Below are positions 17,339 to 55,234 of a stretch of DNA of 64,000 nt, piece by piece. Source of the stretch: Rhizophagus irregularis (Eukaryota; Glomeromycota; Glomeromycetes; Glomerales; Glomeraceae); the NCBI RefSeq assembly GCF_026210795.1, contig NC_089434.1, positions 2,294,001-2,358,000 on the forward strand. The letters are read 5' to 3'. A model generated the notes under the pieces. It did no database searches and was not told the origin of the DNA. It saw nothing but the letters and a program-made list of their open reading frames with translations. Position 1 is the stretch's first letter. Each line of letters opens with the position of its first letter. The position numbers and the translations under genes are program-made.

Positions 17339-17900
17339 TTAGTGCTCCGAACAGATCAGGTCAGATCAGGTCAACCGATTAACCTGACCTGATTTTTTTT
17401 TCAGGTCGAATCAAGTCAGGTATAATCAGGTAAACGGGTATAAACTAATCTGACCTGTAATCTGAAAATATTCAGGTTTATATTCAAGTATCAAATAGAC
17501 AATTTCGATTTGCAACATTGGCGCAATTCTGCATTCCTGCAAGCCGTTTATGACTAAATAATATAATTATATTATTTAGTCATAAACGACTTAGAATAGG
17601 TTATTTAGTAATAAAATAATCTAGATATGATTAAATAATCTAAATATAACTAAATAATCTAAATATAACTAAATAATCTAAATATAACTAAATAATCTAA
17701 AGTTAATAATCTAATTATGGTTAAATAATCTAATTAAATAACCTAATTGTGATAATTTTTTATATCTACCTATTTTTCTTATTATATTTCTTGCCTTTGA
17801 AATCGAATTTCTTTTTCCATTTCCTATTTATCATTTGTGGTCATGTGATTAAATAATCTAATTATGACCATGATTAAATAACCTGAATACGCCTATTTTT
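17339..17900. repeat. Probable solo left arm of a hAT-type element plus TAAATAATC repeats
   Basis: It begins TAGTGCTCCGAACAG, the type of end seen in the hAT elements here, and runs into about ten copies of CAGGTCA/TGACCTG in both orientations (17350-17480). From 17560 it is a simple array of CTAAATAATCTAAATATAA units. No right terminus or target duplication was found, so the element is truncated or its other end has diverged. Confidence 0.5.
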
Positions 17901-18146
17901 ATTAGTGTTTGCGGTATTATAAATACTTTTTGATATAATTTACGTTGATTATGTTCTACAGCCTTTTCATTACCAATTTGATACCTTCCTGTTTATACTT
18001 ATCTCTACCTGATTGGGGGCCGGCTTTTATATTGGAAATGTTAGCCTTCTGTGTCAATTTGGATGCTGGTTCTATGATAAGAATGTAGCCTATTTGGTTT
18101 GCCTCTCTAGATGTCAAAATATGGTAAAAAAATATCGCGTTGGGTG

Positions 18147-19056
18147 TAGGGATGGTAAAGTCCTAGGTCCTGGACCTAAAGACCTGGTCCTAGGACCTGG
18201 TCTGCAGATCTTTAGGTCCAAATTTTGGACCAGAAGCGGACTAGGTCCTAAAAAGTCCTAGCCAATAAGGTTATAAGAGATCTATATGTTTAAATTATAT
18301 ACACACGTCAAATGATCAAAAATAGGCAAAAAAAATGGCGCAAATCGCATAAACTATTCGCAAATTTGTATAAACTATTTACAAATAGTATAGGTTAATT
18401 CGTAAATTGCCAAAAACAGCCAAGAATAGCCAAGAATAGCCACTGCTTTTCGCGCCATTTTTTTTGCCGATTTTTAGCATTTCGACCTGTGATATGTATA
18501 ATTTGCTGTAAATTTGATTTTAAGTAATTATAAATTATAAAAAAGTGCACTGCAATATTGCAATACAATTTTTATATTATTAAAATCATATAAAAAATGA
18601 GTTGCGATATTGCGATTCACATTTTTATATTAAAATCAATATAAAAAAGTGAATCGCGATAACACAACTCACTTTTTTTATATAAAATCAATATAAAAAA
18701 GTGAATCGCGATACCGCAACTCACTTTTTTTATATAAAATCAATATAAAAAAGTGAATCGCGATACCGCAACTCACTTTTTTTATATAAAATCAATATAA
18801 AAAAGTGAATCCCGATACCGCAACTCACTTTTTTTATATAAAATCAATATAAAAAAGTGAATCCCGATATCGCAACTCACTTTTTTTATATTTAATTATT
18901 ACTAAAATTCATAAAATCTATAAATAACTTAGTCAGGACCAGGTCCTGGGACCAGGTCCAGGACTGGTCCTAATAGGACCTGGTCCGCAGGTCCGTTCAA
19001 TAGGACTTATAGGTCCCAGAACCAGGACCGGACCAGGACCGACCTAACCATCCCTA
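18147..19056. mobile_element. hAT-type non-autonomous element, 8-bp TSD GTTGGGTG
   Basis: A 910-bp element with inverted ends TAGGGATGGTAAAGTC and, read inward from the right, TAGGGATGGTTAGGTC. An exact 8-bp duplication, GTTGGGTG, flanks it at 18139-18146 and 19057-19064, diagnostic of a hAT-type insertion. Both arms (to about 18260 and from 18930) are packed with GGTCC/GGACC words in both orientations. The centre is a hairpin array. There is no transposase gene. An open frame over the left arm is incidental. Confidence 0.88.
18580..18895. repeat. ~54-bp tandem hairpin array inside the hAT element
   Basis: Five to six copies of a unit in which AAAAAGTGA and TCACTTTTT form the stem and a CGATACCG-type segment the loop, joined by ATATAAAATCAATAT. 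The same array occurs at 55545-55765. Copies differ by a few substitutions only. Confidence 0.85.
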
Positions 19057-19064
19057 GTTGGGTG

Positions 19065-20564
19065 GCGCAGTAGATTTGTGATTAATTTCGGCTGACACTA
19101 TGGCATAATTCAGGCTGATCTTTTGGGTACGTGATTTGAGGGTCCAACTCAGTGCCATGGTAGCGACCTGGCAGTGCCTTGGGACTTTCCTGGAACTTTT
19201 ATCGAACTGGCAGGGTACTGGAGTGTTTCTATTAATTTGCCAGTTTCAGTACCAGCTTTGGATGCCGAAATATTATGCCCAAAGATCTGGCCAAAATTGT
19301 GAAATAGTGTTGACTGAATTTATACTGCACCTTACTGCATCATGGTCATATGATCCTATTCTGGCACTGAACACCCTTTGCCATATAATATAGCAAATTC
19401 GGTTAATTCTATTAGTTCACCAGTTCAGAAGTATGATATGCATTATTATGGCCAGCCCATTTGATTACCAAAAAGTGCGCCATCCTACAATCTAACTATT
19501 GACTATTTATTGCTGGTATATGTATGCCAATTTCGTATCCCAATATTTGAATCATTAGAACGCATTTATATTATATTTTACCATATTTTCAGGCATATTA
19601 GGATATAAATGAAAAAATCGAAATTTTTCTGTAGAGTGTAGACGCTATGAACATTTTTCTGTGAACACTATGGACGCTTCTATGGACAACCATGGTATTA
19701 TTTTTAGGGTTTTTAAGTTTATTGCTTATTTTCTTTTATATTTGTCCCTAGTGTCTATAGTGTCCCTAGTAAAAGTAAAGTTGTAGGAAAATTTTTGAAA
19801 CTTTTCCTATGCTATATATGTTCCATTATATGCGATTATTTTTTATGCGATATGGGTGGTATATGTGTAATATATGCTATGCTAAAAAATAAAAAAAAAA
19901 GTTAAGAGATCCGATTTTTTCTATGGTCACTATGGTCAATATGGTCACCCATCTGTAAAGCCTTTTAGAGATCTAAAAGCATCAAAAACCCTACTTCCGA
20001 CATCCACAGAAGCGTCCATAGTCTGATTTTTTCTATGGTCGCTATGGTCACCCATCTGGACGGCTTTCCAGGAATCTAAACTGCCCAAAATCTACTTCGA
20101 CGTCCATAAGCGTTTATAGTCCAATTTTTTCTACGACAACTTTCTAAGACCAGTTCTGTATCGTATCAAACCTTTTAATTTTATCGAGATTTCCTCTCAT
20201 CGCCTCTGGAGCTTTGCCCGCTCTGAAACATCTTATTTAACTTTTTCTGGTGATAATATGCATTTGAATGGCACTTATTTACATGCCAATTACAATATCC
20301 ATATTTTGATGCTATCGGTCTTACACACCCATCTTGTTTGCACGGATGTCGCTGACGTCTTTTCCAGTGAATATGACACCCTTGTGGTCAGTCTGCAAGA
20401 TTTCCACAAACCATCCCTTCATTGGAAGGATATTGGCAAATGTATTCACCTCCCATTATTCTCAGATAGCTTTTTGATGACTATAATAAATAATTATTTT
20501 CATTTTAAACTTTTTTACTATAGTAATATACTAAAGGGTATACTTAGATATCATATCCCAAAAA
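19065..20564. other. Non-genic: possible tRNA-like start and a 'CTATGGTCA' word cluster
   Basis: The first ~90 bp read GGTGGCGCAGTAGATT and, about 60 bp on, GAGGGTCCAACTC, weakly like A and B boxes of a tRNA-derived repeat. From 19640 to 20140 the words CTATGGTCA, TATGGACG and CGTCCATA recur on both strands, as in the arms of the hAT-type elements, but no termini were found. Open frames at 19136-19393 and 20258-20578 show no family signal and are not called. Confidence 0.4.
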
Positions 20565-22030
20565 ATGACCAAATCTGACTTCTTCGAAGACGCGCCCTCC
20601 GTCCCGTACTATTATGGGTTTAAAGTCTCCAACATAGGACAATACTTTTACAAAATTCGTGATGATAGTATCAGGCCAAAAGAATTTCTTGGTGCAGACA
20701 ATGAGGATGAAATAGAAGCCATACTCTCAGATCGTGAAGGTCATTCTTTACATGAATTCATTGATGGTGATGAGCCACTCCGGCCTATTATAGATTTTGA
20801 TTTGCCAGTAGAAACATTAAATGCTATTACTCCCAAGCTTTCAGGTGGTTAGGCAAAAAATATACTTTGTCGTAGCTTTAGAGATTAGAGATACTTGCCT
20901 AGAAATATTCCCAAAATGGGATAAAAATACTATGTCTATTGCTGATAGTAATGATGAGAAAAAAATATCTCTACATGTCTTAACTTCTGGCATGAGACTC
21001 CCAAATATCGCTCAGGTCACAATGTTCACTGAGCTTGTCTGTAAGAAACTTCCAGAAGGGTTGCAAGGAAAAGGTATTATCGATAATATAGCAAACAAAT
21101 GATCATTCTCCTTACGAATGATTGAAACACCTAAGTTTGATGAAAAGACTGGAAAACACATTTGTGTGAAAAAAACTATTCTCCCAAAGATGGAACAATC
21201 TTCGACTTCATGCTTCGTCCACCCAATGATGAATCAGAAGTCATAGAAAGTCCTCTCTTAGTCATTCCGGAGTCAGAAAGTATAAGTCATAGTAGTATGG
21301 GCATTGATGTAACAGAAGTCGAATTAGAATTAGTTGGGAAATTGCTCCAAGAGACCAGCATAGAAGGATTTAACCTCTCGTTCCCATCTTAACAATCTCC
21401 TGATATCTTTCCTCTTAAATGCATGGCCCAATCATATTGTTCATTATGTGACCAAGAACATACCAACGAAAATGCATATATTATACGAAATAAAAAATCA
21501 TATAGTTTTCATTACTATCGAGTAGACCAGGAAAAGCCACCTGGGTCAAGAAAGCCTTCAATAAAACTTACTCCTAGTGAGACAGCTTTGAGCTGAGAAA
21601 AGAACCTTCCGGCTCCAGTAAAATTAGAACAATCTAGAATTTCAAACCCAAAAGACCATTTTGTATGGTGGAATTTAATACGTATGTGTACTTTAAGTAA
21701 GAAATTCTCCTGCGCTGAAGTTTATGAAGCAATCCAATCAACCATTGCTTATATTCAAAAGAAAATACCAATCTGAATATTAAAACATAAGGATCCAGAA
21801 AATGGGCTTTACTTCAATATGGGAGCTGAGCTAAAGCTTGCCAAGTTTGAGATTAAAATAATCAAATATAGGGGTGAATCGGTAAAGTTAAAATCGTTAA
21901 TAGACCAGGCAGTTATTAAAGGTCTAATCGTTTACGAAGATTATTACTTCCTCCCATATCCCATAAGCATTCTTCAACCAGATTCAGATTTCTTTAACCT
22001 TTTCCTAGAATTTTTAGCTAAGCCGGGGAC

Positions 22031-23250
22031 TCGAGCCGAGCTACAGTCTGGCTTGGCTCGGCTTGAAGATTTGCGCCAAGCCAAGCCTGAAATGAGCCAA
22101 GCCACAAAAAATCTTGGCTCAGCTCAATTCGAGCCAAGCTGAGCCATGAAAATCCTGGTTTGAGCCAAGCTGGGCTCGAGCTGGCTCGAGTTTTATCATA
22201 AAAATGTTTTCGCAACGTTTTTACTTTAAATTATTAAAAAAAGCGTTGCAAAACGTTTTTTACTTTTATATTTATATAAAACGCCGAAACTATTTGTTTC
22301 AGCATTTTTCCTTTTGATTTTACATGTAAAAACGCCGAAACTGATAGTTTCATCGTTTTTTTTCGATTTTACATGTAAAAGCGCCAGAATAATTAGTTCT
22401 GGCGTATTTCCTTTTGATTTTACATGTAAAAACGCTGAAACTGATAGTTTTGGCGGTTTTCTTTTGATTTTACATGTAAAACCGCCGAAACTGATAGTTT
22501 TGGCGGTTTTCTTTTGATTTTACATGTAAAAATGCCGAAACTGATAGTTTTGGCGTATTTCTTTTAATTTTACATGTAAAAATGCCGAAACAGATAGTTT
22601 TGGTATTTTTATTCAATTGTACATGTAAAAACGCCAGAATAATTAGTTCTGGCATTTTTCTTTTTGATTTTACATGTAAAAATGCCAGAATTATCAGTTC
22701 CGGCAGTTTCTTTTTGATTTTACATGTAAAAATGCCAAAACTATTAGTTCCGGTGTTTTTTTTCAATTTTACATGTAAAAACGCCAGAATCATTAGTTCC
22801 AGCATTTTTTTTTCAATTTTACATATAAAAACGCCGAAACTATTAATTCCGGCGTTTTTTTTTCAATTTTACATGTAAAAACGCCAGAATCATTAGTTCC
22901 GGCATTTTTTTTTCAATTTTACATGTAAAAACTTAAATAAACATTTTCGCAACGTTCTTTAATAAACAATGAAAAAAAGTTGCGAAAACGTTTCGTTTAT
23001 GCATGCATTATTATATAAAAACGTTTCGCAATGTTTTTTGTATAATAGCTCGTTTGGCTCGTGAGCCAGCTCAAGCTTTTTGAGCCAAGTCTGTTACAGG
23101 CTCGAGCTTTTTGAGCTGAGCCTAATAACTGGCTCGAGCTCTTCTAAACTGGCTCGTGGGCCACCAAGCCAATTTAATCATGGCTTAGCTTGGCTCAGCT
23201 TGAAAAGCTTGAGCCAGCTCATAAGCCAGCTTGGCTCGTGTAAAGCACTA
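22031..23250. mobile_element. hAT-like MITE with GAGCCAAG arms inserted in the primase-helicase
   Basis: Both arms (22031-22195 and 23045-23250) are dense mixtures of GAGCCAAGC, GCTTGGCTC and GGCTCGAG on both strands. The right end reads TTTACACGAGCC inward from TAGTGC, like other hAT ends in the window. The left end lacks the TAGTG terminus, so it is trimmed or mutated. CCGGGGAC on the left and CCAGTGAT on the right could be a worn 8-bp duplication (5 of 8 match). Helicase homology stops at LAKP and resumes at VIKVNKE directly outside, which fixes the insert boundaries to a few bases. Confidence 0.7.
22300..22930. repeat. ~60-bp tandem hairpin array inside the MITE
   Basis: About eleven copies of a unit built from two palindromes: TTTTACATGTAAAA, and a hairpin CGCCGAAACT-GAT-AGTTTCGGCG with variants CGCCAGAAT/ATTAGTTCTGGCG. 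Paired arms often change together (GAAACT/AGTTTC against AGAAT/AGTTCT), so stem pairing looks preserved. Open frames on both strands across it are artefacts of the period. Confidence 0.88.
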
Positions 23251-25315
23251 CCAGTGATAAAGGTTAATAAAGAAATTATGGATCTGATTCTCTGACATGT
23301 AAAGAATATAATTTGCAATGGAGATGAAAAACTCAATGAATATATCTGGAACTGGTGGGCATATTTAGTTCAAAAGCCAGAAAAGAAGCCTCGAACAATC
23401 TTAGTACTAAAATCCACTTTACAACAGTATGGGAAAAATATTATCACTGATTTTATTGGTGATAAAGTTCTAGGAGAGCATCTTCACTATGCAGGATCGG
23501 ATTTGGAAAAAATGCTTAGGCGCTTTAATAGCGTCATCCAAGCTCGAAAACTTATTGTTATGAATGAGACTGGGATGTCTAGTGGAGAATGGCATAGATT
23601 TAATGGGCATCTTAAATCTCTTATAACAGAAGGGAAGGTATCCATAGAACGCAAAGGTCTCGAAACTAAGAGATTAAAAGATTTTGCTGGATATATGATT
23701 ACAAGCAATCAGGATGCACCAATTAAGATAGATATAGGAGATTCTTGCGTAGTCTGTTTTGAAGTCTCAGCATGCTGTAGGAGTAATATACCGTATTTTG
23801 ACCAGCTAGGAGAAATTCTAGATCATCCTGATGCACCAGGTATGGTTATGACATACTTTCTTAATCTTGATTTATCAAAATTTAGTCTGGAAAAAATTCC
23901 TAATACTAAAATGAAAGTAGAAACAATGCGCAATCATCTCCCTAATCCTATTCGGTTTATAATAAATTATATTTCATTATAGGATGTGAATAAAATAGCT
24001 AAGCTAAGCAGTACATCTCTATATCAACATTATCTTGAATGGTGTGAAGAGAATGGAGAAAAGCCATTAACTAACAATATTCTCGGCCAGAAGTTTGCAC
24101 AAATCAGCATTGATAAAGTGCGTTCACGAGATAATGGAGTAAGAGTAAATCAGTATATTCTTGGCCGCTCCAAGATTGTAGCTAAGCTTCGTAAATCTGG
24201 CCTAGGCGATATGGAAGAATTTTCTGATATATCTCAAGATGACTTACCCGAAAATGAGACAGCAGACATACCCATATTCAATGTGCCAGAAATTATTCCC
24301 CCAAAAATAATCCCGACTCTTCTAGAAAAGAATACGCCTCCACTTAATACTAGTAAAGATAAGAAGGCGGATAAGAAGAGCGATGTGACTCAAGACCTTT
24401 TCGACTACGTAACAGAACAAACTGAAGCTCCGGTCGCCTCAACAGATCTTGAAGGGACCACATCTGGCACATCTGAGACTTCTAAAACGCCTGAGTCACC
24501 AATCAATAAGCCCAAAGTCGGTAAGCCTCCTGAATCTAACGAGTCTAGCAACGAAGTGGTGAATTTATCTCCTAAAGAAACAAATGTTAAGCATGATTCT
24601 CCAAAGCCTAATGAAGTATCGTCTGCTATACTCCTGGCTAGACAACAGCGTGAAGAGCGCCTCAGAAAAAAGGCAGTCGAACTCGGTGAGAATCCAGATG
24701 CCTTTGTGACCATCACCGAAAAAGACCGATTCGATTCCATTACATTCCGTGATAGAATGGTAACTGATTCACGAATGTGTGCTTGGGCTATAGAGCTAGA
24801 GGATAATTCCAAAGAACATATGGACATGACAATACGAGAAAGATTAATAGGAGAAGAAATAATCTGTTGTTCTCTCGAGGAAGATGAGATCATATCCTCA
24901 TGGCTCGATACCGATAAGAAATGGAAAAAAACAGTAAGCATACTCCAGAAGAATGGTATGCTTTGGTAAAGAGCGAATAAAAAGCCGGCCCTCTCGTTCA
25001 AGAACTTCGAGGTGGATATCTTCAAATCTTTTTTCTCATCCCACAGGTCGATAGATCAAGGGGAATTCTAAATTATTATTATTATTTTTTCGCTTATCCT
25101 ATCAACCTGCAATTTTAAAATCGATGTAAATCTATCCCAGGCCAAGCAGGTAGCCTTAAAGAGATCTCTGCGTAAGTTATATATTTTTTTCCCTTTCTCT
25201 AATCCCCGATATCTTTCACCGACTATGAGATAGTGAAATGTCGGAATATTTTTTTCGAATTGAACTTTTTTCTGCATAGTATAACCAAACAATCTACATA
25301 TTACCAAATAGTATC

Positions 25316-26440
25316 ATGGCTGGCATCGCTACTAAGTATGTAACAGAAAATGGGCTTAATAACGAAATAAGTATCGAAGAGCTCATTCAACATGCGCCAG
25401 AATTTAACATCCTTTTGACGGATAAAGTTAAGAGAAATCAGGCACGTCGATGTCTTCAAAAAGGATACAACTTTAGCAAAGAGTAGATATTTGCATTGAT
25501 TCTTAAGCTGATGGCTGGTCGAAAAAAAGGTGAAGCTATATCCCATAATACTCCAGATACTCCCAATGTTCTCCAAGAAGTAGAACCGGTGGAGGGAGGC
25601 ACGGTAAATGTGTGCCAAATTTCGCAAAAAGAGACTATTAGAGATTTGGCCCAGCGTATCATTCGGGATAATCTTGGTGAAGCAGAAGTAAAAGTTATAG
25701 CTAAAGCCTTAGCTGAATCTGCCTCTAATGCTAGCACTGGTTTATCCCGAATTTCTAGGCTTCGAAGAGAGTTGCGAAATCTCAAAGTCTCAGAAAAAAT
25801 TATTTCGGCTACATTGATTCCAGACATAAATCGCTTAGCTAATAAAATTCAAAAGGAAAAAGGTTTGCTATGTGAAAATGAAGGCATTGATTACCCAGAT
25901 TACTTTGCGTTAGAATCAGTTAAGAAAAGATTGGATGTGTATGATGTATCCAAAGTTCCTGGCTTGCAAACCCTTGCCGATATATAAATAATAATGCTCT
26001 GCATCCGTCTTGCTGAAATAAAAACCCTGCGTATATCTAATGGAGGTGTAACTGGATATGCAAAAAACCGGGAACAACAAGACATTTCTCGAGTATTTAG
26101 ATTACTAGAAAAGAACGAGGAGCGGGCTAGTCAATTGCTTATGTGGATTCAGGAAGCAATTTCTTCCAGACACTTACGAGACCCTGGAAATCCTGGAGTG
26201 TTATGGTTTAATACATTTCTGAAAAAAGATGAGTTCCTTCCTGAAACTGGCAAACCACTACTTCCTAGTTCTTTGCGCAAATTAAGGGCGGTATTTGCAG
26301 TCGTTTCGAATTGTGCGAAGAATTTATCAGAGGCTATGACTATTGCCAGTGAAGCACTTCGCTACAGTCCTGACAACCATGCCTCTCCTGCAAAAAACTA
26401 TACTATAGTAAATTATCGCAAAAGAGGACAACCTCACTGA
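25316..26440 (+). pseudogene. Probable tyrosine recombinase, two in-frame stops
   Basis: A single frame of about 374 codons from the ATG at 25316 to 26440, broken by TAG at 25484 and TAA at 25985. The N-terminal half is helical and basic, a possible DNA-binding part. The C-terminal 150 residues have the order expected of tyrosine recombinases: MLCIRLAEIKTL (Arg and Glu of box I), GYAKN with the beta-hairpin Lys, LRKLRAV (candidate box II Arg), then ALRYSPDNHASPAKNY ending in the candidate nucleophile Tyr. The usual His before it ('LGH/LRH') is Tyr here, which one C-to-T change would produce. It follows the primase-helicase relic by about 350 bp on the same strand, which suggests one mobile element (Crypton-like in a broad sense). 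No transposon of known class is identified; the family call rests on motif order and needs a profile search. Confidence 0.5.
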
Positions 26441-26609
26441 TCAGGCAAAGGCAATCAAGATTTTTGATGAAAACTAATCACATATATGGGTTAGAGGGGA
26501 TCCTAGAGAGATCAGATCAGGAGGCATTACCTCTGGTAACCCTGGTATCATTTATTAATTTTATTTTTTCGCTCGAGACAAGATCTAGCATATAGAATAT
26601 ATTACGAAA

Positions 26610-27026
26610 ATGGTAGCTGATCAAAAGTATTCATCTGATATATCCAGCGAGCAGGAAGTTATCAGATATACAGAGAAATTACCCCAGTCATTAGGACTGG
26701 ATGAGCAGAATACAAGAGCATATAAAGCACTCTCTAGACAGATTTGGGCGTTAGAAAAAAGACTGGAAGATTATTATTTCGAATATGTAAAGCTTAAAAA
26801 GAAGGTCAATTTATTGAAAGCTGAATTGGATGATCTGGACGAATGTGTGGATAGGGAGACTGTGGTCGACTTAATTCATGAAATAGTTCTTTCGCTGATT
26901 GGTAAAGCAGGGCAGAAAGAATGTAAGGGTTCTTCCTATTCGTCTGACTCTTCCAAAGAATCTGATTTAGTTGAGATGGTAAGAGAACGAAAAGCTGTCC
27001 CTCATAAGCAACGAAGGAAGGCGTGA
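26610..27026 (+). CDS. Coiled-coil hypothetical protein
   Basis: An intact 138-aa frame starting at an ATG 39 bp after the TTATTTTTTCG motif. Residues about 35-85 form a heptad-rich coiled coil (LSRQIWALEKRLEDYYFEYV, then a Leu/Lys-rich run). A Ser/Asp-rich segment and a basic tail ending KQRRKA follow. I do not recognise a family. It is the only undamaged frame in the block between the recombinase relic and the F-box relic, so it may still be functional, or it is just short enough to have escaped stops. Confidence 0.55.
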   Translation: MVADQKYSSDISSEQEVIRYTEKLPQSLGLDEQNTRAYKALSRQIWALEKRLEDYYFEYVKLKKKVNLLKAELDDLDECVDRETVVDLIHEIVLSLIGKAGQKECKGSSYSSDSSKESDLVEMVRERKAVPHKQRRKA

Positions 27027-27118
27027 CCAAGAAAAGTTAAGCGGGTGGTAGTTTGAAGTGGGCCGAGCCAGAATTTTATTTTTTCGTTTAAAGATACAAC
27101 ATATAAAATGGAATATTT

Positions 27119-28157
27119 ATGACGCAATCAAGCATCTTTTATTTACCAGAAGTATTAGAACATATTTTACATTTCTTATTGATAGATAAATCCATCTACC
27201 CTGCTCTATATGTTTCCCAATTGTGATACAGATGCGGTACCCTATTCTATGGAGATGCATTGAGCTAAAGGGAATGATCCCAAAGCAAAGAAATTCATAA
27301 AATTAGTATGTGGAAAGCAAAAGCCAATTTATAGCTTGAAACTAACCCATCTCGAAATTCCATACTATAATCTACTTTCAAGTAAGAAAATTGAAGGCAT
27401 CGTAAGAACATGCCCAAACATAATTCATTTGAATTTCGAAAATTGTGTGGGTTTTAGTAATAGAGCATTAAATCAGCTTAAAGCATATCCCAATGTGAGA
27501 TATCTCAATTTATGTAGTAGTGGTATTATGGGTGATAAAGCTTTATGTGGAATGGTGGAATCATGTCGTAAAATAGAATATCTAAATATTTCTTTCTGTC
27601 AAGGCATTACTGATAGATCTTTAATCAAAATTGCGGACAGTTGTCAAGCTTTACAAAAGTTTCATTTTGCTTGTGCGCATTTGATTTCTGAAAGATTTAT
27701 AAGTTACATCTTAAACTCATGCCCAAATTTACTAAGATTCAGTATTCCGGGTAGCTGTCGAAGAAAAAATAGATGTGATATATTAGTAGAAAAACTTCTT
27801 ACTATAGAGAAATACCTTAATGTAGAGAAACATCTTAGTGTAGAGTATCTTGATTTTGGTAGGTGTGTTTACATCGCTGAGACTTCAATTTGCAATGCCA
27901 TTCATTCCTGTCCAAATCTCCAACATCTCAACCTTAGTTTTTGTGGAATTACTGATAAAACTATCGAAGAAATTGCTAGATCATGTTATATTTTAAAATA
28001 TCTTAATTTAAGGGGGTGTTATAAAATTAGCAAAGGAGTCGTAAATAAGCTAAATCCAAATATCCACATAGAGAATTTCGAGGAAACTTTATCACATCCC
28101 GATCTCATTAGAGCAGTTAGAAATCATCTTATACAGAATAATGTTTTTAATAGATAA
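27119..28157 (+). pseudogene. F-box / leucine-rich repeat protein relic
   Basis: From the ATG at 27119 the frame reads an F-box (LPEVLEHILHFLLI...YPALYVSQL), then a TGA where Trp is expected in 'QLWYRC'. At least two frame changes follow before the long open part (27336-28157). That part has about eight AMN1/Skp2-type Cys-containing LRRs, with repeated 'C.NI.HLNF..C' and 'YLN(L/I)SFC.GITD' units. Such proteins link substrates to SCF ubiquitin ligases, and the family is large in Glomeromycotina. The long open part has no ATG at its start. A sequencing error is a weaker alternative, because three separate lesions would be needed. Confidence 0.7.
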
Positions 28158-28196
28158 ATTTTAGCTCAGGGTCTTCAGCGCCTCTTAGATTTAAGT

Positions 28197-28427
28197 ATGC
28201 GAGATAATTTGCAGTGGTATTCCGATCCAGGGTTGGCTAGATCAACAGTTCAGAGTGGTGGTCGGTTATATAACACCCGGCATAGTGTTGCTAATAATCA
28301 AAATTCAGTTCTATCTCAGATACACTGGCAACCTAACAGACGGTCACTAAGGAATTATTTTGATAGAATACTAGCTAATCAAGCAAAATGCTGGTACTCT
28401 ATTGATCTAACTAATCCGGAGCAGTGA
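28197..28427 (+). CDS. Short unassigned open frame
   Basis: A 76-codon frame from an ATG, containing GGRLYNTRHSVANNQNSV and a Trp/Arg-rich end. Its composition is protein-like rather than repeat-like, but there is no recognised family. It could be an exon or the tail of a lost gene, lying between the F-box relic and the minus-strand gene at 28481. Confidence 0.25.
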   Translation: MRDNLQWYSDPGLARSTVQSGGRLYNTRHSVANNQNSVLSQIHWQPNRRSLRNYFDRILANQAKCWYSIDLTNPEQ

Positions 28428-28480
28428 TCAGCTCAGAAGATTTTTTGTTGGGTTATAGTCTGTGTGATAAAAAATATAGA

Positions 28481-29107
28481 TTAGCTAACCTGTTCTAGAC
28501 ATGGGCATTGACCGGCACTAGATGGATTTTTGATGAATATTTCGTGCAATTGTTGAGGAGAGAGCTTCAGAAATAATGGAAGCCCCTCTCCAGTAAACAT
28601 AATTTTCTTTACACCTATTTCACCATATTTCGGAAATATCACACCTGGATCATCCTTTAAGGGACCATGAAACTCCTTAAGCTTCCGGAGATATGCTCTC
28701 ATATTTTCATCAACTTCTTCTGCTCTTTCTTGATTAGAATAGCCAACAATGTCGAGTTTATCCTGAATTGCTATTATATCCTCTTTCAAACACATAAACA
28801 AATTAAATATTTCACTAAATGGAATATCTGTAGAAGCTTTATTGCTTCGGAGTGCTTCTTCTAGAATGGGATTACCATCAATATTGAGTTTCTCCTGAAT
28901 CGGTATTAAATCCCCTACCAATTCTAACAACAGCTCGTAAGAATCGGCAAGTGTTTTTCCCATGAGCTCGGAATCTAGAGGCACTACTAATTCATTTGCA
29001 TTGCCAGGGCCAATACCGAGTTTCTCCTAAATAGCTATTATATCCTTCTTCTTATATAAAAACAGTCCATAAAACTGAGCAAGCGTTTCAGGGTTATTAT
29101 TTGCCAT
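28481..29107 (-). pseudogene. Helical protein with three internal repeats, one TAG stop
   Basis: A frame of 209 codons from the ATG at 29107 to 28481 with one TAG at 29027-29029. Three internal repeats of about 50 residues share the core '(D/L)IIAIQEKLxI': IIAI-stop-EKLGI, LIPIQEKLNI and IIAIQDKLDI. Comparison of the repeats shows that the stop replaces Gln (CAG to TAG). The C-terminal 70 residues form a separate part (FHGPLKDDPGVIFPKYGEIG...). The family is not recognised. A start downstream of the stop (28984) would give an intact 167-aa protein, so it could still be expressed in shortened form. Confidence 0.5.
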
Positions 29108-29687
29108 GCCACTCCTGTGTGACAGAAAAATAAGTGGATCAGCAGTCAGCCTCATGTGCAACATAATTTTCGCATATATATCAAAAAACATATTAACCTT
29201 TATTATTTATTTTTTCCTGAACAATCATGAGAAAAATGGCCTGCTTCACAGGCGCTTCGCTTGAAAGGAAGTCTACATGCAACACAAAACCAACTCTAAA
29301 AGTAAATAGTGCGACAAAAGCATATGTTATGAAAGGCTGAGGACTTTGGAATTTTGAGATCGCTAGGCGTAAAACCAACTGTGTCTTTCTGGTAGATCTA
29401 CATGTGAAAGGGTATAAGAATTACATTTGCATGTGCCTTCATAGAACTCTTGGCATCAGACAACAATACTAATTACGCTTTATATCTCCTTATCTTTGGC
29501 TTGGCGCTCTTTTTCCCAGCAAGATATAAAGCATGTAATGGTATGTGGAAGTTTAGCCAACATTTCTCAAAAAACTTTCCCAGAGAAAATAGTTTCACTA
29601 GCGTAGCTAACGCAAATAAGGTATGTATATGCCAGAAGTTGTGTATTTATGGGGACGAGTTTTCTCACTACGGGCTCTTGTTTTTAG

Positions 29688-30095
29688 ATGTCTGATAAAG
29701 CTAGTATTATTACTCTCAACTGTCTCATCTCCGGCGAGGAAGCAAACGATGTCTTTGGAATAAAAATATCTTGCGAAGGAGTATCAAACTCAAATGATAA
29801 TCGAGTTTCTATTCTTGCAGATAAAATCAGAAACTGTCGTCTAGATCTATTTAAAGATACTGATTCGAGCAAGCTAATTTTATATATGAATAAGGCTGAA
29901 GCTGATAGTGTCGTAATTCTCGGCTTAAAAAATGATAAAGGGGCTATATTGAATGGTACGGAATTGATGAAGCATGAAAACACCATTTTAAGTTATTTTA
30001 ATGGTCAACCCTCTCCTAAATATCAAGGCGAAAAGGGGTCAATATTATCGTATATCCTCCTACAGATGATTAATATTTTCATTCGTATCATGTAA
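29688..30095 (+). CDS. Small protein resembling a Crinkler N-terminal domain
   Basis: An intact 135-aa frame. The beginning (ASIITLNCLISGEEANDVFGIKI), followed by a segment 'ILADKIR...LDLFKDTDSSKLILYM', parallels the ubiquitin-like leader of Crinkler proteins ('ITLLCLVKG...', 'L..IDTDKLKLW'), including the gene just downstream at 30485. No nuclease or kinase module follows. A good intron (donor AAATAAG|GTATGT at 29621, acceptor TTTTTAG directly before the ATG) would place an exon upstream, probably 5' UTR. AATAAA at 30170-30175 is a plausible polyadenylation signal. Confidence 0.5.
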   Translation: MSDKASIITLNCLISGEEANDVFGIKISCEGVSNSNDNRVSILADKIRNCRLDLFKDTDSSKLILYMNKAEADSVVILGLKNDKGAILNGTELMKHENTILSYFNGQPSPKYQGEKGSILSYILLQMINIFIRIM

Positions 30096-31320
30096 AGCGG
30101 TCCCGGTCAGACCTCTATTCGTATTTTTTATGTAATGTAGGCCGACTTCTGTCAATAATTTATTTCATAAATAAAGTATTATTATTGTATTGTATATGAG
30201 AAATGGGTCACGTGTAATGGTGCGGTCCAAATCTAACATTTTTATCTGAACTAATCTAGCCTAATAAAAAATGTCAGGTGATAAGTGAGAAGAGTCTTCA
30301 TGGTTAGGGAGGCGCAGTGATTAGGTGATCGTTGCACTTGACCGATTATACGGCAGGCTTGTGAAATAGAATAATTTTTCACATATAGTATTTTTTTGCA
30401 AATAAAATTCTTTTTACTCTTGTCCTCACATACCGCACTTTGAGCCAATAACATTTCGCAAAAAATACTATATAAGCCGAAAACATGTCTATCACTTTAC
30501 TATGTCTTGTCAAAGGAAATACGACCGCTAGTGCTTTTCCTGTCGATATTAATAAGGACCAGCTTGTAGGCTACCTCAAGAAAGTTATTAAGGCAGAAAA
30601 GCAAAATGACTTCGCTGGAATAGACACAGACAAGCTCAAGCTATGGAATGTGTCGATATCTGACGATCAGAACGATCTCTTAAACAATCTCACACTCAAT
30701 GACGGGGACGAGCTCCTTGCAACAAGAAAGATTTTGAAATACTTTCCAGACTCACCTCTCGAAGAACATATTCATGTTATTGTAAAATTGCCACGTAAGT
30801 GTCTGGAGTGTCTGGTATAGTCTAATTTTTCGTCATTTGCCCTTGTAATATTAACACGCATTCGTTTTCAGTTCTCAGCTTAGAAGAGGCTTTGTTGTGT
30901 ATTCCACCACCCATAACATATTCTCCGGACTGTACTAAATCGAAGACCACTACAAAGGTTAATGGTGGCCCACTGACGAGTGTACAACTATGGGACGACT
31001 TTTTTGATAAAGTGAATCAATTCCGCTTCGACCAACAACCGATATTAGAGAGGCCAAAATTTGTGGTGAAAGAGATAGAAAATGAAGAGGATGTTCGAAG
31101 TGTTTTAGATTTCAATATTTGTCAGACATTGAATTATCTTTTGGGATCTGATCATAAATTTTCAAGATGTTCACCTGATACTCCTGGCATACCGGATTTC
31201 ACCTGTCATCTTGTGGGTTCGTTGATCTTGGTGATTGAGGCAAAAAGAAAGCATGTTTTAGAAGATATGGGCGAAGAAATATTTCCCGAGTTTTATCAGA
31301 CGAGTAAAGGCAAGGATGTA

Positions 31321-33513
31321 CAGTCAACTCTCTATAAATGCACCACCCATAAATGCACACCCTCTCTAAATGCACACATTTGCTTAGTCCCAAGTTTGGG
31401 ACTTAGTGCTAAATACATACCCTTTATATATACACCGTGCAATGATTTTAAAAGTCCCACCTATATCAGTAATAATCTCCCTAAATGCATTCACGTGACT
31501 TTTAGATGATTTTCACGTGATGTACTGCGGTTTTTATAGACACGTTACTGTGGGAATTTCATCTTTTTTTGACGGAAAATAAGTCAACATGCTTCCTAAA
31601 ACTCCCAAAAAAAAGTCACTTTAACAGACTCTCAAAAATATGAACTTTGTCTTTATGCTAGTAATAATAAAAAAACTCGAGTTCAGTATATAGACTGGGT
31701 TGAAGAAAAGTGGGGAGTTAGAGTTGACAAAACTACTATAACACGAATCTTATAAACTAAAGAAAAGCGGCTTATCACTGAAGTCATTTACCCAGAGCAA
31801 AAACGGCACAAACCTGTTACCTTTCCAGAACTTGAGCTTGCTCTCAAGGAGTTTGTGTTAAATTATCAGCACCGAACAATCCTAAGTGATGCGATACTAG
31901 TTGAAAAGGCCAAGTTACTGGCAAATGGGTTGGGAGTTCCTGAAAATATGTTACAATTTTCTTCCGGTTGGCTTCAAGGATTTAAAAAACGTAATGGAAT
32001 CCGTCAAGAAAAGCTTCAAGGAGAAACAGCATCAGCTAATGAAACTGCTATTATGGAAGCCTTACCATTATTACATAATAAGTGTGTCAATTACCCTCTT
32101 GAACGTATCTATAATATGGATGAAACTGGGCTTTTTTACCAGTATATTTAATTTTTTTTATTATCTAAGGTGGTAGGCTTGAACAGAATCCAAATATGAC
32201 TATAATTATTTATTTAATTTTTTTATTGTTTTGCAGATTAGAACCAGATCAAACACTAGCTACAAAACGTCTTTCTGGATGAAAGAAAGCAAAGAACGCC
32301 TTTCTATAGCTTTGTGTTCAAATGCTGATGGATCACATAAATTACCTCCTTTAATAATCGGCAAATATGCAAATCCAAGGTGCTTTAAAAATATCAATAT
32401 TTACAACTTACCCATGACATACCGAAATAATGCTAAAGCTTGGATGCTCATAACAATTTTTCAAGAATGGCTTCATGAATTTGATCATCAAGTTGCATTA
32501 AAACATGGAGGTCAACGCGTTTTGTTGTTACTTGATAATTGTACAAGTCACAAGGTGGAAAATCTTGCCCTTCTGCATGTTGAAATTCAATTTTTACCTC
32601 CAAACACAACATCAAAGATTCAGCCAATGGATGCTAGAATCATCATGTCATTTAAAAAACATTATCGTCATCATCATATCCGGTAAGTAACTAACTATAT
32701 TTATATTTTATTTTACTGAATAATTTATTATTTTATTTAGTTGGTTGTTAGAACAAGTTGAGGCTGGACAAAACATACAGGATCTAAAGATAGATATTTT
32801 GCAAGCCATTCGGTATATCATTCCAAGTTGGAATGAAGTTACAGTTGAAACAATCTGAAACTGCTGGAATCAAACCAGGATTCTTCCTGATAACGAATAT
32901 GATGAAACTGATAATGAAGACGATGATCAGATGATTGATGAACTTTCTAGAACAATTCAAGCCCTTAATCTTCCTAATGTAATGCGAGTAAAGGAATTTC
33001 TTAATATTCCTGAAGAAGATATTACATATGAAATTTTTGAAGATGAACAAATCATTACGGAACTTATAAACATTTTTAAAAATTCTTACGAAAATACTGA
33101 AGATTTGGATGAAATAGATGATAGTGACGAGATAGTAACTATAAGCACTAATATAGCATTAAAAAGCTTAGAAACTGTGAATATGTTCTTACTTCAACAA
33201 GAAAATACTGAAGAATATATCAAATTAATAGGTAAAATTGAAAAATTTATTAGAAAAAAATAGGTACATATGATGCAGCAGACTACAATTGATCAGTATT
33301 TTAATTAATAACTGTATTATTAATTATAATAAATGCTAAATAATTAAATTGAATAATAAATAATGTTAACATATAATATAATGCATTTTTTCTGATTTTT
33401 AGTGTTTCTGTAATGTAAAATCTAAAAAAAAAATTTTTTTTTATAAATGCACACCCTTTATAAGTGCACGCTTATAGCTGGTCCCAAGGGGTGCATTTAT
33501 AGAGAGTTGACTG
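31321..33513. mobile_element. Pogo/Tigger transposon, TA target duplication
   Basis: A 2193-bp element with inverted ends CAGTCAACTCTCTATAAATG on the left and its exact complement on the right, flanked by TA at 31319-31320 and 33514-33515. Subterminal DNA on both sides repeats AAATGCAC(A/C)C words. It carries one transposase gene on the plus strand (31589-33263) with introns. It sits inside the Crinkler coding exon. Confidence 0.92.
31589..33263 (+). pseudogene. Pogo/Tigger (DDE_1) transposase, recently broken
   Basis: An N-terminal CENP-B-type HTH region (LTDSQKYELCLYASNN, then VEEKWGVRVDKTTITRIL) lies behind a frameshift after the ATG. The DDE_1 core has its three acidic positions visible: NMDETGLFYQ (about 32120), LLLDNCTSHK (about 32535) and QPMDARII (about 32630). 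Introns 32142-32235 and 32683-32740 are GT-AG and in phase. Damage: TAA at 31753 (expected Gln or Lys), one deleted base at 'SGWKES' (about 32280) and a TGA near 32856 at an expected Arg. The acidic C-terminal tail is intact. It is only lightly decayed, so a working relative probably exists elsewhere in the genome. Confidence 0.85.
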
Positions 33514-34719
33514 TAGTTCAACAAATTTATAATTATATGGGAGAAAACGAACTTAGATACGATATTCTTACTACCTACGATAATCACTGGTTTCTATGCT
33601 GAGAACACACGAAGCTCTGGATCTCAAAAACCCTTTCACTAGAATCCGAATCTCCACCCGTACTCAAGGCATATGCTTATCTAACTCGACAGGCGAAAGA
33701 GAATCCCAACTCTCCTAAACTTCAAGTACTAGTGCCAGCTCAAGGGGACAATGATTCACATACTCTTCAATCAAACTCAAAATTATCATCCAGCTCTTCA
33801 TTAACTAATCAGGCTTCCAGCACCTTTTCGAATCAACAATCATCTTCTAACGTCCCAGTAAATTAGCAAAAGTTTAGCTTTGCAGACTTCAAGTTTAAGA
33901 GCATACTAAGTGGAAAAACGCTCCTATGCGAATTTCATGGTGAAATGATTGCTTTGAAGAGTGTAGACTTATCGAAGGCTCCATCGTATGTCCTGGAAGA
34001 AATGCAAAAAGAAGTCGAGATTTATAAAGATCTAGCTGATATTCAAGGCAAGTATATCCCAAAGCTGATCTGTTATGGATATTATGGAAGAGGTATGAGC
34101 TTCGTTATCGGCATGACCATTGTCAGCACTTCGTTGAGCGAGCAAAAAATAAAGAAACGGCAAAAGACAAGGGCTATTAAGGGATTAGAAGCGATCCACA
34201 AGCATGGCATCCTCCACAATGACATTCGGAAGGAAAACATCTTAATTAATGATGATGGTGGCGTCTATCTGATTGACTTCGGTATGGCAAGTCGGGAGGA
34301 CACAAAAAAGAAGAGAAAGCTTTTCGAGGAGGAACAGCTCAAATACTCTAACTTGCTAGATAGATATAATACGTAAGATTTATTATTTCACAAATTCCTA
34401 TTTCTTGCAATCTTGCGAAGCGCCTTAACGGCTAATTTCTTATAATTAATAATCATGTATTTTACAGACATTTTGTAAAGAAGGAGGGGCGAATTTCCAA
34501 GTCACGTAAATGTCAGGTGGTTAGTTAGACTGTAGGATTAGCTATAGCATAGACGCCATGTATCTCGGGCAAAGTCCTGAACCTTTGTATTTATTTTTTT
34601 GCATGTAATAATAAAAAAATTTCTTGGCAAAACCGTGAACAATGTTCACGATCAGCCAAAATGGCCTACATATTTTTATTTTAAATGTTTATATACAGTG
34701 TATTAGTTATATATAGATC

Positions 34720-35859
34720 ATGTCATCTGAGCTTGAATTATCGAAACAGCGTATCACTGAACTTGAGGCTGAGAATTCCGGTCTTAGAATCAAGCTCTCA
34801 GTGTCTGATGCTGAAATAGCTGAACTTAAGCACAGTAATATCGAGTTTCTAAGAGCGAATAAGGAATATAACGAGAGGCGTGATGCTGAGAATGCCAAAC
34901 TCAAGGCCAGAATCGAGGAGATGGAATCTGAGTTTGAAGATAGAATCACGAAAGTGGAACAGAAGCAGACTCTGCAAAGCGCCTTAACGGCAAATTATAA
35001 TTCTTCTAACAACAGTTCATCTAATTTCAATTTGGTTGTAGATCAGGTGCTAATGGTAACGCATCACAAGAAACCATTGGTGGATACTTCATTACCTGAA
35101 GACAAGGAAACAGATGCTTTCTTGGGTGAGGTGCATAAGAAAAAGGTTAGTAATGAGATTAGGCAGAGAAATCAGGAAAAAAAACTTTACTTTAGCGCCT
35201 CCGGCCAAACCCAAAAGTCTCTTCCAATAGGGTCCCAAAGGGATCAGAGGCCTCAAGTTCTTGACTCGATTACTCAGCCATGCAATAGCGCATCATCAGA
35301 AGTATCAGCTAATTCAGATGGCGGGGAAGTACCTCCAAAATAGTGTTCCAATCCGTCAATCCCCCATCCGTATCCGTCGTCGAATATTCGTCATTTTCGG
35401 ATATCCGTCATTTCGGATATCCGTACATACGGATAGGACGGATCACGGATATCCGTGATAGATTGACGGATCCCATCCGATCCCATCCGAATTAAACGGA
35501 TCATCTGGATAATCCGATTTTTACTACATAATTCTGGTCAAATCTGTAATGCTGGCCAGAATGATAAAAAAATTTTTTTTTCAACTTTGTGTTACACAAA
35601 TGTTACACAACATAATTCGGGCTAGCACTATGAATTCGGCCCAATTTAAAATTCAACGGATATCCGAGGTTATCGTCACACGGATATCCGTCATGTCGGA
35701 TATCCGTACATACGGATAAGACGGATCACGGATATCCGAAAGTGGCGGATGACGGATGACGGATTATCCGCGGATTGTAACACTACTCCAAAAGAGAAGA
35801 TAGGTAGTGAACTGGATTCAAAGTGCAAGAAGGTGGGAAGAATTGTGAACAGCTTTTAA
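34720..35859 (+). pseudogene. Coiled-coil gene with 'VDTSLPEDKETDAFL' block, split by a hAT MITE
   Basis: The first 207 codons (34720-35340) give a leading coiled coil (LSKQRITELEAENSGLRIK and on) and the block VDTSLPEDKETDAFLGEV, then KKKVSNEIRQRNQEKKL. I associate this block with a repeated lineage-specific family of Rhizophagus-type genomes of unknown function. The frame ends inside the MITE at 35341-35785. Without the MITE and one copy of its duplication, the frame continues EKIGSELDSK... for 21 more codons to a TAA at 35857. The protein is otherwise undamaged, so the insertion may be recent or tolerated. Confidence 0.65.
35341..35785. mobile_element. hAT-type MITE, 8-bp TSD CTCCAAAA
   Basis: A 445-bp element with ends TAGTGTTCCAATCCG and, read inward from the right, TAGTGTTACAATCCG (one mismatch). 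An exact CTCCAAAA duplication lies at 35333-35340 and 35786-35793. Both arms are packed with CGGATATCCG, GACGGATCAC and ACATACGGATA in both orientations. The centre is plain AT-rich DNA with no tandem array. There is no coding capacity. Confidence 0.92.
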
Positions 35860-54095: not shown

Positions 54096-54358
54096 TTTTG
54101 ACTTGTGGAAGACGCATGTAAATATAAGATTAGCTTAGCTTGAGAGATGATCCCAATCGAATTTGGGTTTAGTAGTATGTAGTCTCTCTAAATCGGCTAC
54201 AAATCGATAAAACTGCTATAAATCATTAAAACTGCTTAACCGGCAAATTTGAAACATGTTATCCATTAGTATAAGATACTAAAAAGTTGCTAAAAATGCT
54301 ATAAATCAATAAATTGCTATAAATCGTTATAATTCGTTCATTTAAGTGAACAAGAAAT

Positions 54359-55234
54359 ATGTCCGGATTATCTTCTAATATTATTTTAGATGAGTGGTTT
54401 AATAAGATTGTGCCTAAACCTATTAATAATCATCCTGGATACGATATGAAATATGTTAGCGCATATATTGTAAATTACTGTTATGGTACTGACCTCAAAA
54501 AAATAATCGGAATAGAGTGGGAGTATGATACATTATCAGTTGTGAAACCAGGTCAGTCTCTAGTTGCATGGGCTGTAAATGTCAGAATTCGATTACAAAA
54601 ATTATTAGCCAATCAGAGATTTAGTGTATATTACCGACATTGCTTATTTGCAGGATTTGGGAATGGCAAGATGGTTAATTCTGACTATCATCAGCCCAGA
54701 ATCAATAAGAGTAATATGGCTATTTGGTTTGATTGCTGGAAATTGGTAAAGATTACTGATATAAAACCAAAAAAAACATATTTCAGTGGATGGCGCAGAT
54801 ATGGATATGAGATTAAATCTGAGGACTTGATGAAATACCATTGGAATAATGAATGCTCCAAAGCTAAAACCCCAGATGGAAGTGCTCGGCTTATTCAAAA
54901 AGCTTATAGAAATTATAGGAAGAGGCCTGTTTTACTAGCAAAACAAGTTTGGGAGGCAGTTAGAAATGATAACACTCCTAGAGAAAAGAAGTTTCTTAGT
55001 ATGCCTAGTAGAGATACTCGTTGCACTGTAAACTTGGATATATGGTATTCTATTGATGGATTATATAGACCTTTTAATATTCCACTAGATCAATTTTATG
55101 ATTATATAAGTTATTCAAAGCATAAGAGGTGCCAATTATCTGATAGATTGGCCATAGCAAGAAATAAAATACAATGCAACTATATCGTAATAAAATGCTT
55201 TCAAATTTTAGTAATTTATATTTCATTTTCTTAA
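54359..55234 (+). CDS. Hypothetical protein with an IQ-like motif
   Basis: An intact, intronless 291-aa frame from an ATG. The N-terminal ~180 residues are of unknown fold, with many aromatic residues (IGIEWEYDTLSVVKPGQSL, WFDCWKLVKI, YFSGWRRYGYEIK). At about residues 180-200, SARLIQKAYRNYRKRP has the IQ spacing (IQxxxRxxxxR with one shift) known to bind calmodulin or light chains, and KQVWEAVRND follows. I associate this 'IQ...KRP...VW..(V/I)R.D.TP' arrangement with a repeated family in Glomeromycotina of unknown role. The last ~20 hydrophobic residues (IKCFQILVIYISFS) may be out-of-family tail sequence. Confidence 0.6.
   Translation: MSGLSSNIILDEWFNKIVPKPINNHPGYDMKYVSAYIVNYCYGTDLKKIIGIEWEYDTLSVVKPGQSLVAWAVNVRIRLQKLLANQRFSVYYRHCLFAGFGNGKMVNSDYHQPRINKSNMAIWFDCWKLVKITDIKPKKTYFSGWRRYGYEIKSEDLMKYHWNNECSKAKTPDGSARLIQKAYRNYRKRPVLLAKQVWEAVRNDNTPREKKFLSMPSRDTRCTVNLDIWYSIDGLYRPFNIPLDQFYDYISYSKHKRCQLSDRLAIARNKIQCNYIVIKCFQILVIYISFS

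What the first reader, a model, noticed from the sequence alone, without database searches (positions are those of the whole stretch)
20565..26440. Primase-polymerase/SF3 helicase followed by a tyrosine-recombinase-like gene: possible replicative mobile element of a fungus
Two adjacent same-strand relics carry replication and integration functions. The first has a primase DxD (IIDFDLP), a Ser-x-His motif, a Cys/His segment and an SF3 helicase with Walker-A-like, Walker-B-like and TSN motifs. The second has the Arg/Glu...Lys...Arg...Tyr order of tyrosine recombinases. A PrimPol-helicase with its own integrase would be a self-replicating integrative element in a eukaryote, not the usual DDE or Crypton layout. 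The linkage could also be chance within a gene-poor accessory block.
Basis: partly seen in the sequence, partly recalled or inferred. Interest (0 to 1): 0.85.

Follow-up and report, generated by a model that had tools for sequence, protein, structure and literature searches.

The report
Fungal DNA element with hairpin-type telomeres
The two broken genes are part of a family of roughly 38,000-base mobile elements in a soil fungus that carry DNA-copying genes, end in mirror-image sequences, and encode an enzyme shaped like the one some bacterial viruses use to seal the ends of linear DNA into hairpins.

The parts
17542..17591 (.). Left terminal palindrome (50 bp; inner 44 bp perfect); left end of the element
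   Evidence: centred on ATAATATAATTATATTAT; homology to other copies begins here and outer flanks differ
17593..17992 (+). Subterminal iterons resembling the palindrome half-site
   Evidence: 8 matches (<=2 mismatches) to own palindrome arm in the 400 bp inside; shuffles mean 0.14, max 1
20565..24966 (+). PrimPol / SF3 (D5-like) helicase gene, decayed (stops, frameshifts, insertion)
   Evidence: (DUF5906 4.2e-18; Pox_D5 1.4e-7); open frames of 981-1100 aa in four other copies
22030..23256 (.). ~1.2-kb secondary insertion with ~50-bp tandem repeats inside the helicase gene
   Evidence: alignments to other copies stop at 22024-22030 and in most resume at 23251-23266
25250..25257 (+). TTTTTTCG promoter-like motif 58 bp before the ATG of the second gene
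   Evidence: same motif also at 25085, 26564 and 27079, and in other copies
25316..26440 (+). Telomere-resolvase-like tyrosine-recombinase-fold gene (two in-frame stops)
26610..27026 (+). ORF3, ~138 aa, charged/coiled, unknown function, conserved position
   Evidence: matched downstream of the second gene's place in 11 of 12 fetched loci (all but L031)
27119..28157 (+). LRR (F-box-type) cargo gene, decayed
   Evidence: on 27264-28157 (LRR families to 5e-12); same-strand match below 1e-20 in L026, L028, L029, L030, L033
29688..30095 (+). Crinkler-type N-terminal domain cargo gene
   Evidence: PF20147, 1.0e-7
30826..34376 (+). Nuclease-like plus protein-kinase cargo gene, interrupted by an insertion at about 31320-33516
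   Evidence: aligned to L045 with a break between 31319 and 33517; unbroken relative L045:2202-3566 hits Pkinase 8e-16; nuclease part judged by eye
17542..34968 (+). Extent of the element recognised in the window; no right end and no polymerase found in the window

Best explanation
The window carries a decayed copy of a self-replicating element family (~38 kb in its shortest complete copies) of arbuscular mycorrhizal fungi. SHOWN from sequence: copies read at both ends have a perfect palindrome of 40-52 bp at each end, arm-matching iterons just inside (left ends), a tyrosine-recombinase-fold gene and usually a PrimPol-SF3 helicase gene (5 of the 7) reading inward from one end, a family-B DNA polymerase reading inward from the other (4 of 4 tested), and 5-bp target-site duplications outside. 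INFERRED: the extrachromosomal form is linear DNA with covalently closed hairpin ends. PolB and the primase-helicase copy it. The replicated ends are the full palindromes, and the second gene's protein, a telomere resolvase, binds the arms through its N-terminal region, cuts about 6 bp apart at the centre and reseals each half into a hairpin. For insertion, a separate integrase (not identified) opens the hairpin at its base and joins the unfolded 3' end to staggered target DNA. Gap filling would then give a complete palindrome and a 5-bp duplication at each end. The element also carries F-box/LRR, Crinkler-type and nuclease-kinase genes as cargo.
For: (1) Colinear gene order in 12 fetched loci: second gene found in 11 of 12, 9 with strong and 2 (L032, L035) with distant matches; 24 of 29 loci of at least 55% identity genome-wide. 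(2) Palindrome core ATAATATAATTATATTAT: 66 sites against 10 for the reversed control (50 of 66 listed). All 9 consecutive listed pairs 30-60 kb apart enclose exactly one second-gene locus, and 14 of the 48 second-gene loci on the listed part have a palindrome 4-10 kb upstream (genes shifted at random: mean 0.13, maximum 3 in 2000). (3) Both ends of 7 copies: perfect palindromes 40-52 bp; 5-bp duplication exact in 6 of 7, 4/5 in the seventh, 0 of 42 cross-pairs. (4) Structure: model pLDDT 79, pTM 0.59; Foldseek top 3 of the PDB are TelA chains, E 4.3e-5 to 1.2e-4; VIA Z TelA 12.9 (rmsd 5.4, 266-267 aligned), TelK 11.9 (rmsd 12.2), ResT domain 8.8 (rmsd 4.2, 142), then lambda Int 7.6, Cre 6.9. 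(5) Pentad conserved in 60-64 of 66. (6) Three palindrome types; iterons match only their own type. N-region DNA identity 0.868 (n=15 pairs, all within type 1, 0.780-0.981) within a type against 0.631 (n=13, 0.614-0.671) between types; helicase 0.828 against 0.834; the catalytic part lies between, 0.843 against 0.762. (7) PolB at the far end: one 2-kb stretch read (PF00136 1.1e-35, exonuclease 8.4e-14), and three 130-bp blind probes all hit it at 98, 83 and 72% identity. (8) Palindromes stay perfect while arms differ (L028, L029, L030, C5), as expected if arms are copied from a hairpin.
Confidence: 0.77

Rival explanations
1. The second gene is an ordinary tyrosine integrase and the palindrome is its attachment site, used for insertion and excision of a circular form.
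For: Tyrosine-recombinase fold and conserved pentad; phaeoviruses are proposed to use a tyrosine recombinase for insertion (PMC13236599, passages read).
Against: 5-bp target duplications (6 of 7 exact) and a complete palindrome at each end of 7 copies. A crossover at a palindromic site would leave half-sites and no duplication. The flanks printed share no core with the palindrome. Fold is nearer to telomere resolvases than to integrases.
Confidence: 0.08
2. The second gene is a catalytically dead or regulatory tyrosine-recombinase-fold protein that binds iterons to start or control replication; the terminal palindromes act as self-priming hairpins opened by another nuclease, as in parvovirus-like replication.
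Against: All five catalytic positions are conserved in 60-64 of 66 relatives, which a pure regulator would not need.
Confidence: 0.1
3. These are fragments of endogenous giant (asfarvirus-like) virus genomes that integrated repeatedly, not a mobile element with its own life cycle.
For: PolB strongly matches a 1206-residue polymerase chain (recalled as that of African swine fever virus); asfarvirus-like PolB reported in R. irregularis (PMC5294986, PMC10640383).
Against: Copies with similar gene order, defined ends and target duplications; PMC10640383 reports no major capsid gene in five strains (passage). Descent from such viruses is not excluded and is compatible with the best explanation.
Confidence: 0.15
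4. Chance linkage of two unrelated transposon genes in a gene-poor block.
For: The window copy alone is decayed and interrupted.
Against: 24 of 29 loci co-occur, 20 of them at 1.7-2.3 kb; palindrome pairs enclose one second gene in 9 of 9.
Confidence: 0.01

Closest known systems
Telomere phages / linear plasmid-prophages of the N15 type (TelN, telRL)
   Same: A tyrosine-recombinase-fold telomere resolvase, a perfect or near-perfect palindrome of 50-56 bp (N15 56 bp, phiKO2 50 bp) and a replication protein (N15 gene 37, 'DNA replication protein'; recalled as primase-helicase) in one small linear replicon
   Different: Ours is in a fungus, integrated in chromosomes with 5-bp target duplications, palindromes at both element ends, family-B polymerase on board; no significant sequence-level match to TelN
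Phaeoviruses of brown algae (EsV-1, FsV-158, Ectocarpus EVEs)
   Same: Eukaryotic DNA replicons with a predicted telomere resolvase proposed to act on a palindromic site, and an integrated state (PMC13236599, passages)
   Different: They are giant viruses; their palindrome is internal, and insertion at a CC dinucleotide is ascribed to a tyrosine recombinase
Polintons / Mavericks (features recalled)
   Same: Large element with inverted ends, short target duplication, a DNA polymerase B; an SF3-type helicase
   Different: Polymerase here is PF00136 with PF03104, not the PF03175 type; PrimPol fused to the helicase; palindromic ends and resolvase; rve integrase and capsid genes not looked for in the unread 16.6 kb
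Asfarvirus-like orphan PolB genes of R. irregularis
   Same: Probably the same PolB genes: 15-33 copies per genome on multiple chromosomes (PMC10640383); not proven, as no tree or gene-by-gene match was made
   Different: Published as traces of infection; no carrier element with ends was described in the passages read
Crypton / YR transposons, Starships (features recalled)
   Same: Fungal elements with a tyrosine-recombinase-fold gene
   Different: Replication genes and 5-bp duplications here; the gene is nearer in fold to telomere resolvases

Membership tests
Telomere resolvase (protelomerase) | Tyrosine-recombinase / type IB topoisomerase catalytic residues R-K-R-H-Y | tested here: met
   60, 62, 61, 62 and 64 of 66 relatives; TelA set R255, K286, Y363, R366, H394, Y405 from PMC3558466 passages
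Telomere resolvase (protelomerase) | Fold closest to TelA/TelK/ResT | tested here: met
Telomere resolvase (protelomerase) | Sequence-profile match (PF16684 ResT-TelK_cat) | tested here: not met
   0 matches in own genome; not among families shown; hhalign E 0.057-0.39. So it is described as resolvase-like, not filed as a member of PF16684
Telomere resolvase (protelomerase) | Palindromic target at replicon ends | tested here: met
   Both ends of 7 copies
Telomere resolvase (protelomerase) | Makes covalently closed hairpins | not testable with these tools
   Needs biochemistry
Tyrosine integrase elements (Crypton, Starship, virophage-type) | PF00589-type profile | tested here: not met
   No PF00589 in the window pieces nor among the 25 of 55 families shown for 66 members
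Tyrosine integrase elements (Crypton, Starship, virophage-type) | Insertion by site-specific crossover without staggered-cut duplication (recalled) | tested here: not met
   5-bp duplications, 6 of 7 exact
Polinton/Maverick | Terminal inverted repeats and 5-6 bp target duplication (recalled) | tested here: met
Polinton/Maverick | Protein-primed (PF03175-type) DNA polymerase (recalled) | tested here: not met
   PF00136 with PF03104 only, in the one 2-kb stretch read
Polinton/Maverick | rve integrase, capsid and packaging genes | not tested
Nucleocytoviricota / Asfarviridae | Asfarvirus-like PolB | tested here: inconclusive
   Best PDB matches are three chains at 9e-126 to 5e-125 (8ywg, 1206 residues, and two more), next 5e-21; their identity as the African swine fever virus enzyme is recalled; no tree built
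Nucleocytoviricota / Asfarviridae | Major capsid protein | not tested
   Reported absent from five strains in PMC10640383 (passage)

The most novel reading that the evidence does not exclude
A previously undescribed class of eukaryotic mobile element: a linear, protelomerase-type hairpin-telomere replicon with its own PolB and primase-helicase that moves into fungal chromosomes by a cut-and-join enzyme, spread through Glomeromycotina. Resolvase specificity and telomere sequence evolve together into incompatible types, so that different elements in one nucleus do not resolve each other's ends.
Probability: 0.6. Interest if true: 0.95.

Novelty: categorically new. Interest (0 to 1): 0.92.

Why it matters
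Hairpin telomeres made by a resolvase are known from bacteria, their phages and, by prediction, a few algal giant viruses. Finding the whole apparatus (palindromic ends, arm-matching iterons, resolvase-like enzyme, polymerase, primase-helicase) as a multi-copy chromosomal element of a fungus would add a new class of transposable element. It would also explain where the orphan asfarvirus-like polymerase genes of R. irregularis probably sit, and it offers a natural experiment in how a resolvase and its telomere change specificity together. It is directly testable with one protein and one oligonucleotide.

Tried and rejected
Rejected: YR as integrase (5-bp duplications, complete palindromes); chance linkage; RNA feature (Rfam 0 matches). 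Sequence-only proof of YR homology failed. First structure model (A2, pLDDT 63) gave no YR match. Viral collection: helicase 0 relatives, second gene 0, PolB one distant contig at 26% identity. Right end and polymerase of the window copy: not found in the window. My first co-occurrence counts (25 of 30 and 19 of 44; 14 of 31) used hand-picked rows, at least one of them (C28, 48% identity) probably picked because the other gene was near; one search repeats them with fixed rules (all rows of 55% identity or more, all 88 rows), and those numbers are the ones reported. Literature: searches gave no report of such an element in fungi (open-licence PMC only, listings read); one search was irrelevant. 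Papers: PMC13236599, PMC10640383, PMC11075540, PMC5294986 and PMC3558466, passages read only; others, search listing only.

Full report
WHERE. The window is G000:C6:2294001-2358000 of a 146.7-Mb, 32-contig genome. Several contig lengths equal those printed for R. irregularis records (OCT59 series) in the protein searches, so it is taken to be R. irregularis.

OBSERVATION. Pieces of the first hit DUF5906 (4.2e-18) and Pox_D5 (1.4e-7); pieces of the second hit nothing. The PrimPol part has the expected motif order (DFD, SxH, C-x2-C...H; C293 and C296 invariant, D79 and H300 nearly so in 16 relatives) but no profile match of its own. The nearest solved relative covers only the helicase: 6k9c/6k9e 'Primase', 1.1e-6. 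Of 56 helicase relatives, the 12 most distant are one bacterial and otherwise unnamed proteins with DUF5906; some also carry PF08707, PF05272 or PF09250.

NOT A LONE PAIR. In its own genome the helicase piece has 151 listed matches (a lower bound), in three identity tiers. In the nearest tier (rows of at least 55% identity, 29 merged loci) 24 have the second gene downstream on the same strand within 8 kb, 20 of them at 1.7-2.3 kb. Conversely 42 of 66 second-gene loci have no such helicase upstream. In 12 fetched 10-kb loci, the order PrimPol-helicase, second gene, ORF3 recurs (second gene in 11 of 12, two of them distant; ORF3 in 11 of 12), and five have an LRR gene beyond. In the other tiers (8 loci fetched, L037-L044) no match to the second gene appeared and the helicase is followed by a ~620-aa frame or its parts. 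That frame was tested in two loci and hits DNA_pol_B_2, in one of them just under the curated cut-off. This is a separate element type.

THE ENDS. Pairwise DNA comparison showed homology starting abruptly at window 17542 and at equivalent points in other copies. There lies a palindrome. Its 18-bp core occurs 66 times in the genome against 10 for the reversed pattern (50 of 66 sites listed). Nine consecutive listed pairs lie 30-60 kb apart (36.2, 37.6, 37.8, 38.1, 38.2, 41.9, 45.3, 52.7 and 58.3 kb), and each encloses exactly one second-gene locus; 14 of 48 second-gene loci on the listed part have a palindrome 4-10 kb upstream, against a mean of 0.13 and a maximum of 3 in 2000 random shifts. 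Reading both ends of seven copies gave palindromes with perfect arms of 20-26 bp. The flanks of six copies carry an exact 5-bp direct repeat and the seventh 4 of 5; none of 42 wrong pairings matches. Ends read AGCC...GGCT.

HAIRPIN-LIKE EVOLUTION. Arms differ between copies yet stay self-complementary: L028, L030, L029 and the C5 copy. In the 400 bp inside eight left ends, each copy has 4-9 near-matches to its own arm. The three arm types share none of each other's iterons; base-shuffled controls give means of at most 0.18 and a maximum of 3.

ENZYME AND SITE CHANGE TOGETHER. Among eight copies with a known palindrome, DNA identity of the gene's N-terminal region is 0.78-0.98 within a palindrome type (15 pairs, all of type 1, not independent) and 0.61-0.67 between types (13 pairs). 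The helicase shows no such split (0.828 against 0.834), and the catalytic part a smaller one (0.843 against 0.762); L027 and L030 share 94% of the helicase but 63% of the N-region. This is strong evidence that this protein reads the palindrome and the iterons.

THE OTHER END. One 2-kb stretch 3-5 kb inside the far palindrome of the C6 copy is a single open frame of a family-B DNA polymerase with exonuclease domain. From this I predicted its position in three other copies and drew 130 bases from each: all three hit it (98, 83 and 72% identity). Its best PDB matches are three chains at 9e-126 to 5e-125, one of 1206 residues, against 5e-21 for the next; I recall these to be the polymerase of African swine fever virus. 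Published surveys found asfarvirus-like polymerase genes in R. irregularis (PMC5294986), 15-33 copies per genome in regions that encode only PolB and/or an mRNA capping enzyme (PMC10640383). That paper also reports no D5 helicase marker in five strains, so the helicase described here escaped its marker set or differs from it. A Gigaspora rosea protein, P0236, begins like our PrimPol and continues as this polymerase, 46% identical, suggesting the same linkage there.

MECHANISM. Shown: ends, duplications, gene content at both ends, co-variation. Inferred: a linear form with hairpin ends; copying by PolB and primase-helicase; resolution of the palindromic junctions by the second gene's protein; insertion by a cut-and-join enzyme that opens the hairpin at its base. 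That last step accounts for complete palindromes together with a 5-bp duplication. The enzyme for that step is not known.

LIMITS. Only about 56% of one copy was read; the middle is unread, so capsid or integrase genes are neither shown nor excluded. Two of the seven complete copies (C5, C23) have no helicase of this tier listed, and PolB was tested in four of the seven. The window copy is decayed, and its right end was not found.

Noticed in passing
L037-L044 (G000 loci), e.g. L037:3974-8469: A larger family of SF3 helicases (45% and 32% tiers, many with open frames) followed by a ~620-aa frame or its parts; in L037 and L042 this hits DNA_pol_B_2, probably Maverick-like elements distinct from the one reported.
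   Followed up: partly
L040:554-615: A 62-bp perfect palindrome with a different core (centre GGTACC) about 3 kb upstream of the helicase frame of a second-type locus; found in 1 of 8 such loci.
   Followed up: no
window 25085, 25250, 26564, 27079: Motif TTTTTTCG shortly before successive genes, also in other copies; looks like an element-specific promoter or gene-boundary signal.
   Followed up: partly
P0236 (Gigaspora rosea protein): Annotated protein that starts as the PrimPol and continues as the element-type DNA polymerase; a fused gene model or a real fusion.
   Followed up: partly
window 29688-34376 and L045:1840-3566: Crinkler N-terminal domain and a nuclease-kinase protein ride inside the element, as does an F-box/LRR gene: cargo that may help spread these families in this fungus.
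   Followed up: no
window 31756-32686: Pogo/Tigger-like DDE transposase frames (recalled resemblance, no profile run) inserted in the nuclease-kinase gene (frames).
   Followed up: no
window 54350-55234 and L042:8729-9262: Two frames with a weak match to the same IQ-motif family; the window frame may belong to a second-type element fragment.
   Followed up: no
C8 copy, L026 and L056: The same single mismatch between outer and inner palindrome arm occurs at both ends of this copy, as if an imperfect hairpin had been copied to both ends.
   Followed up: no
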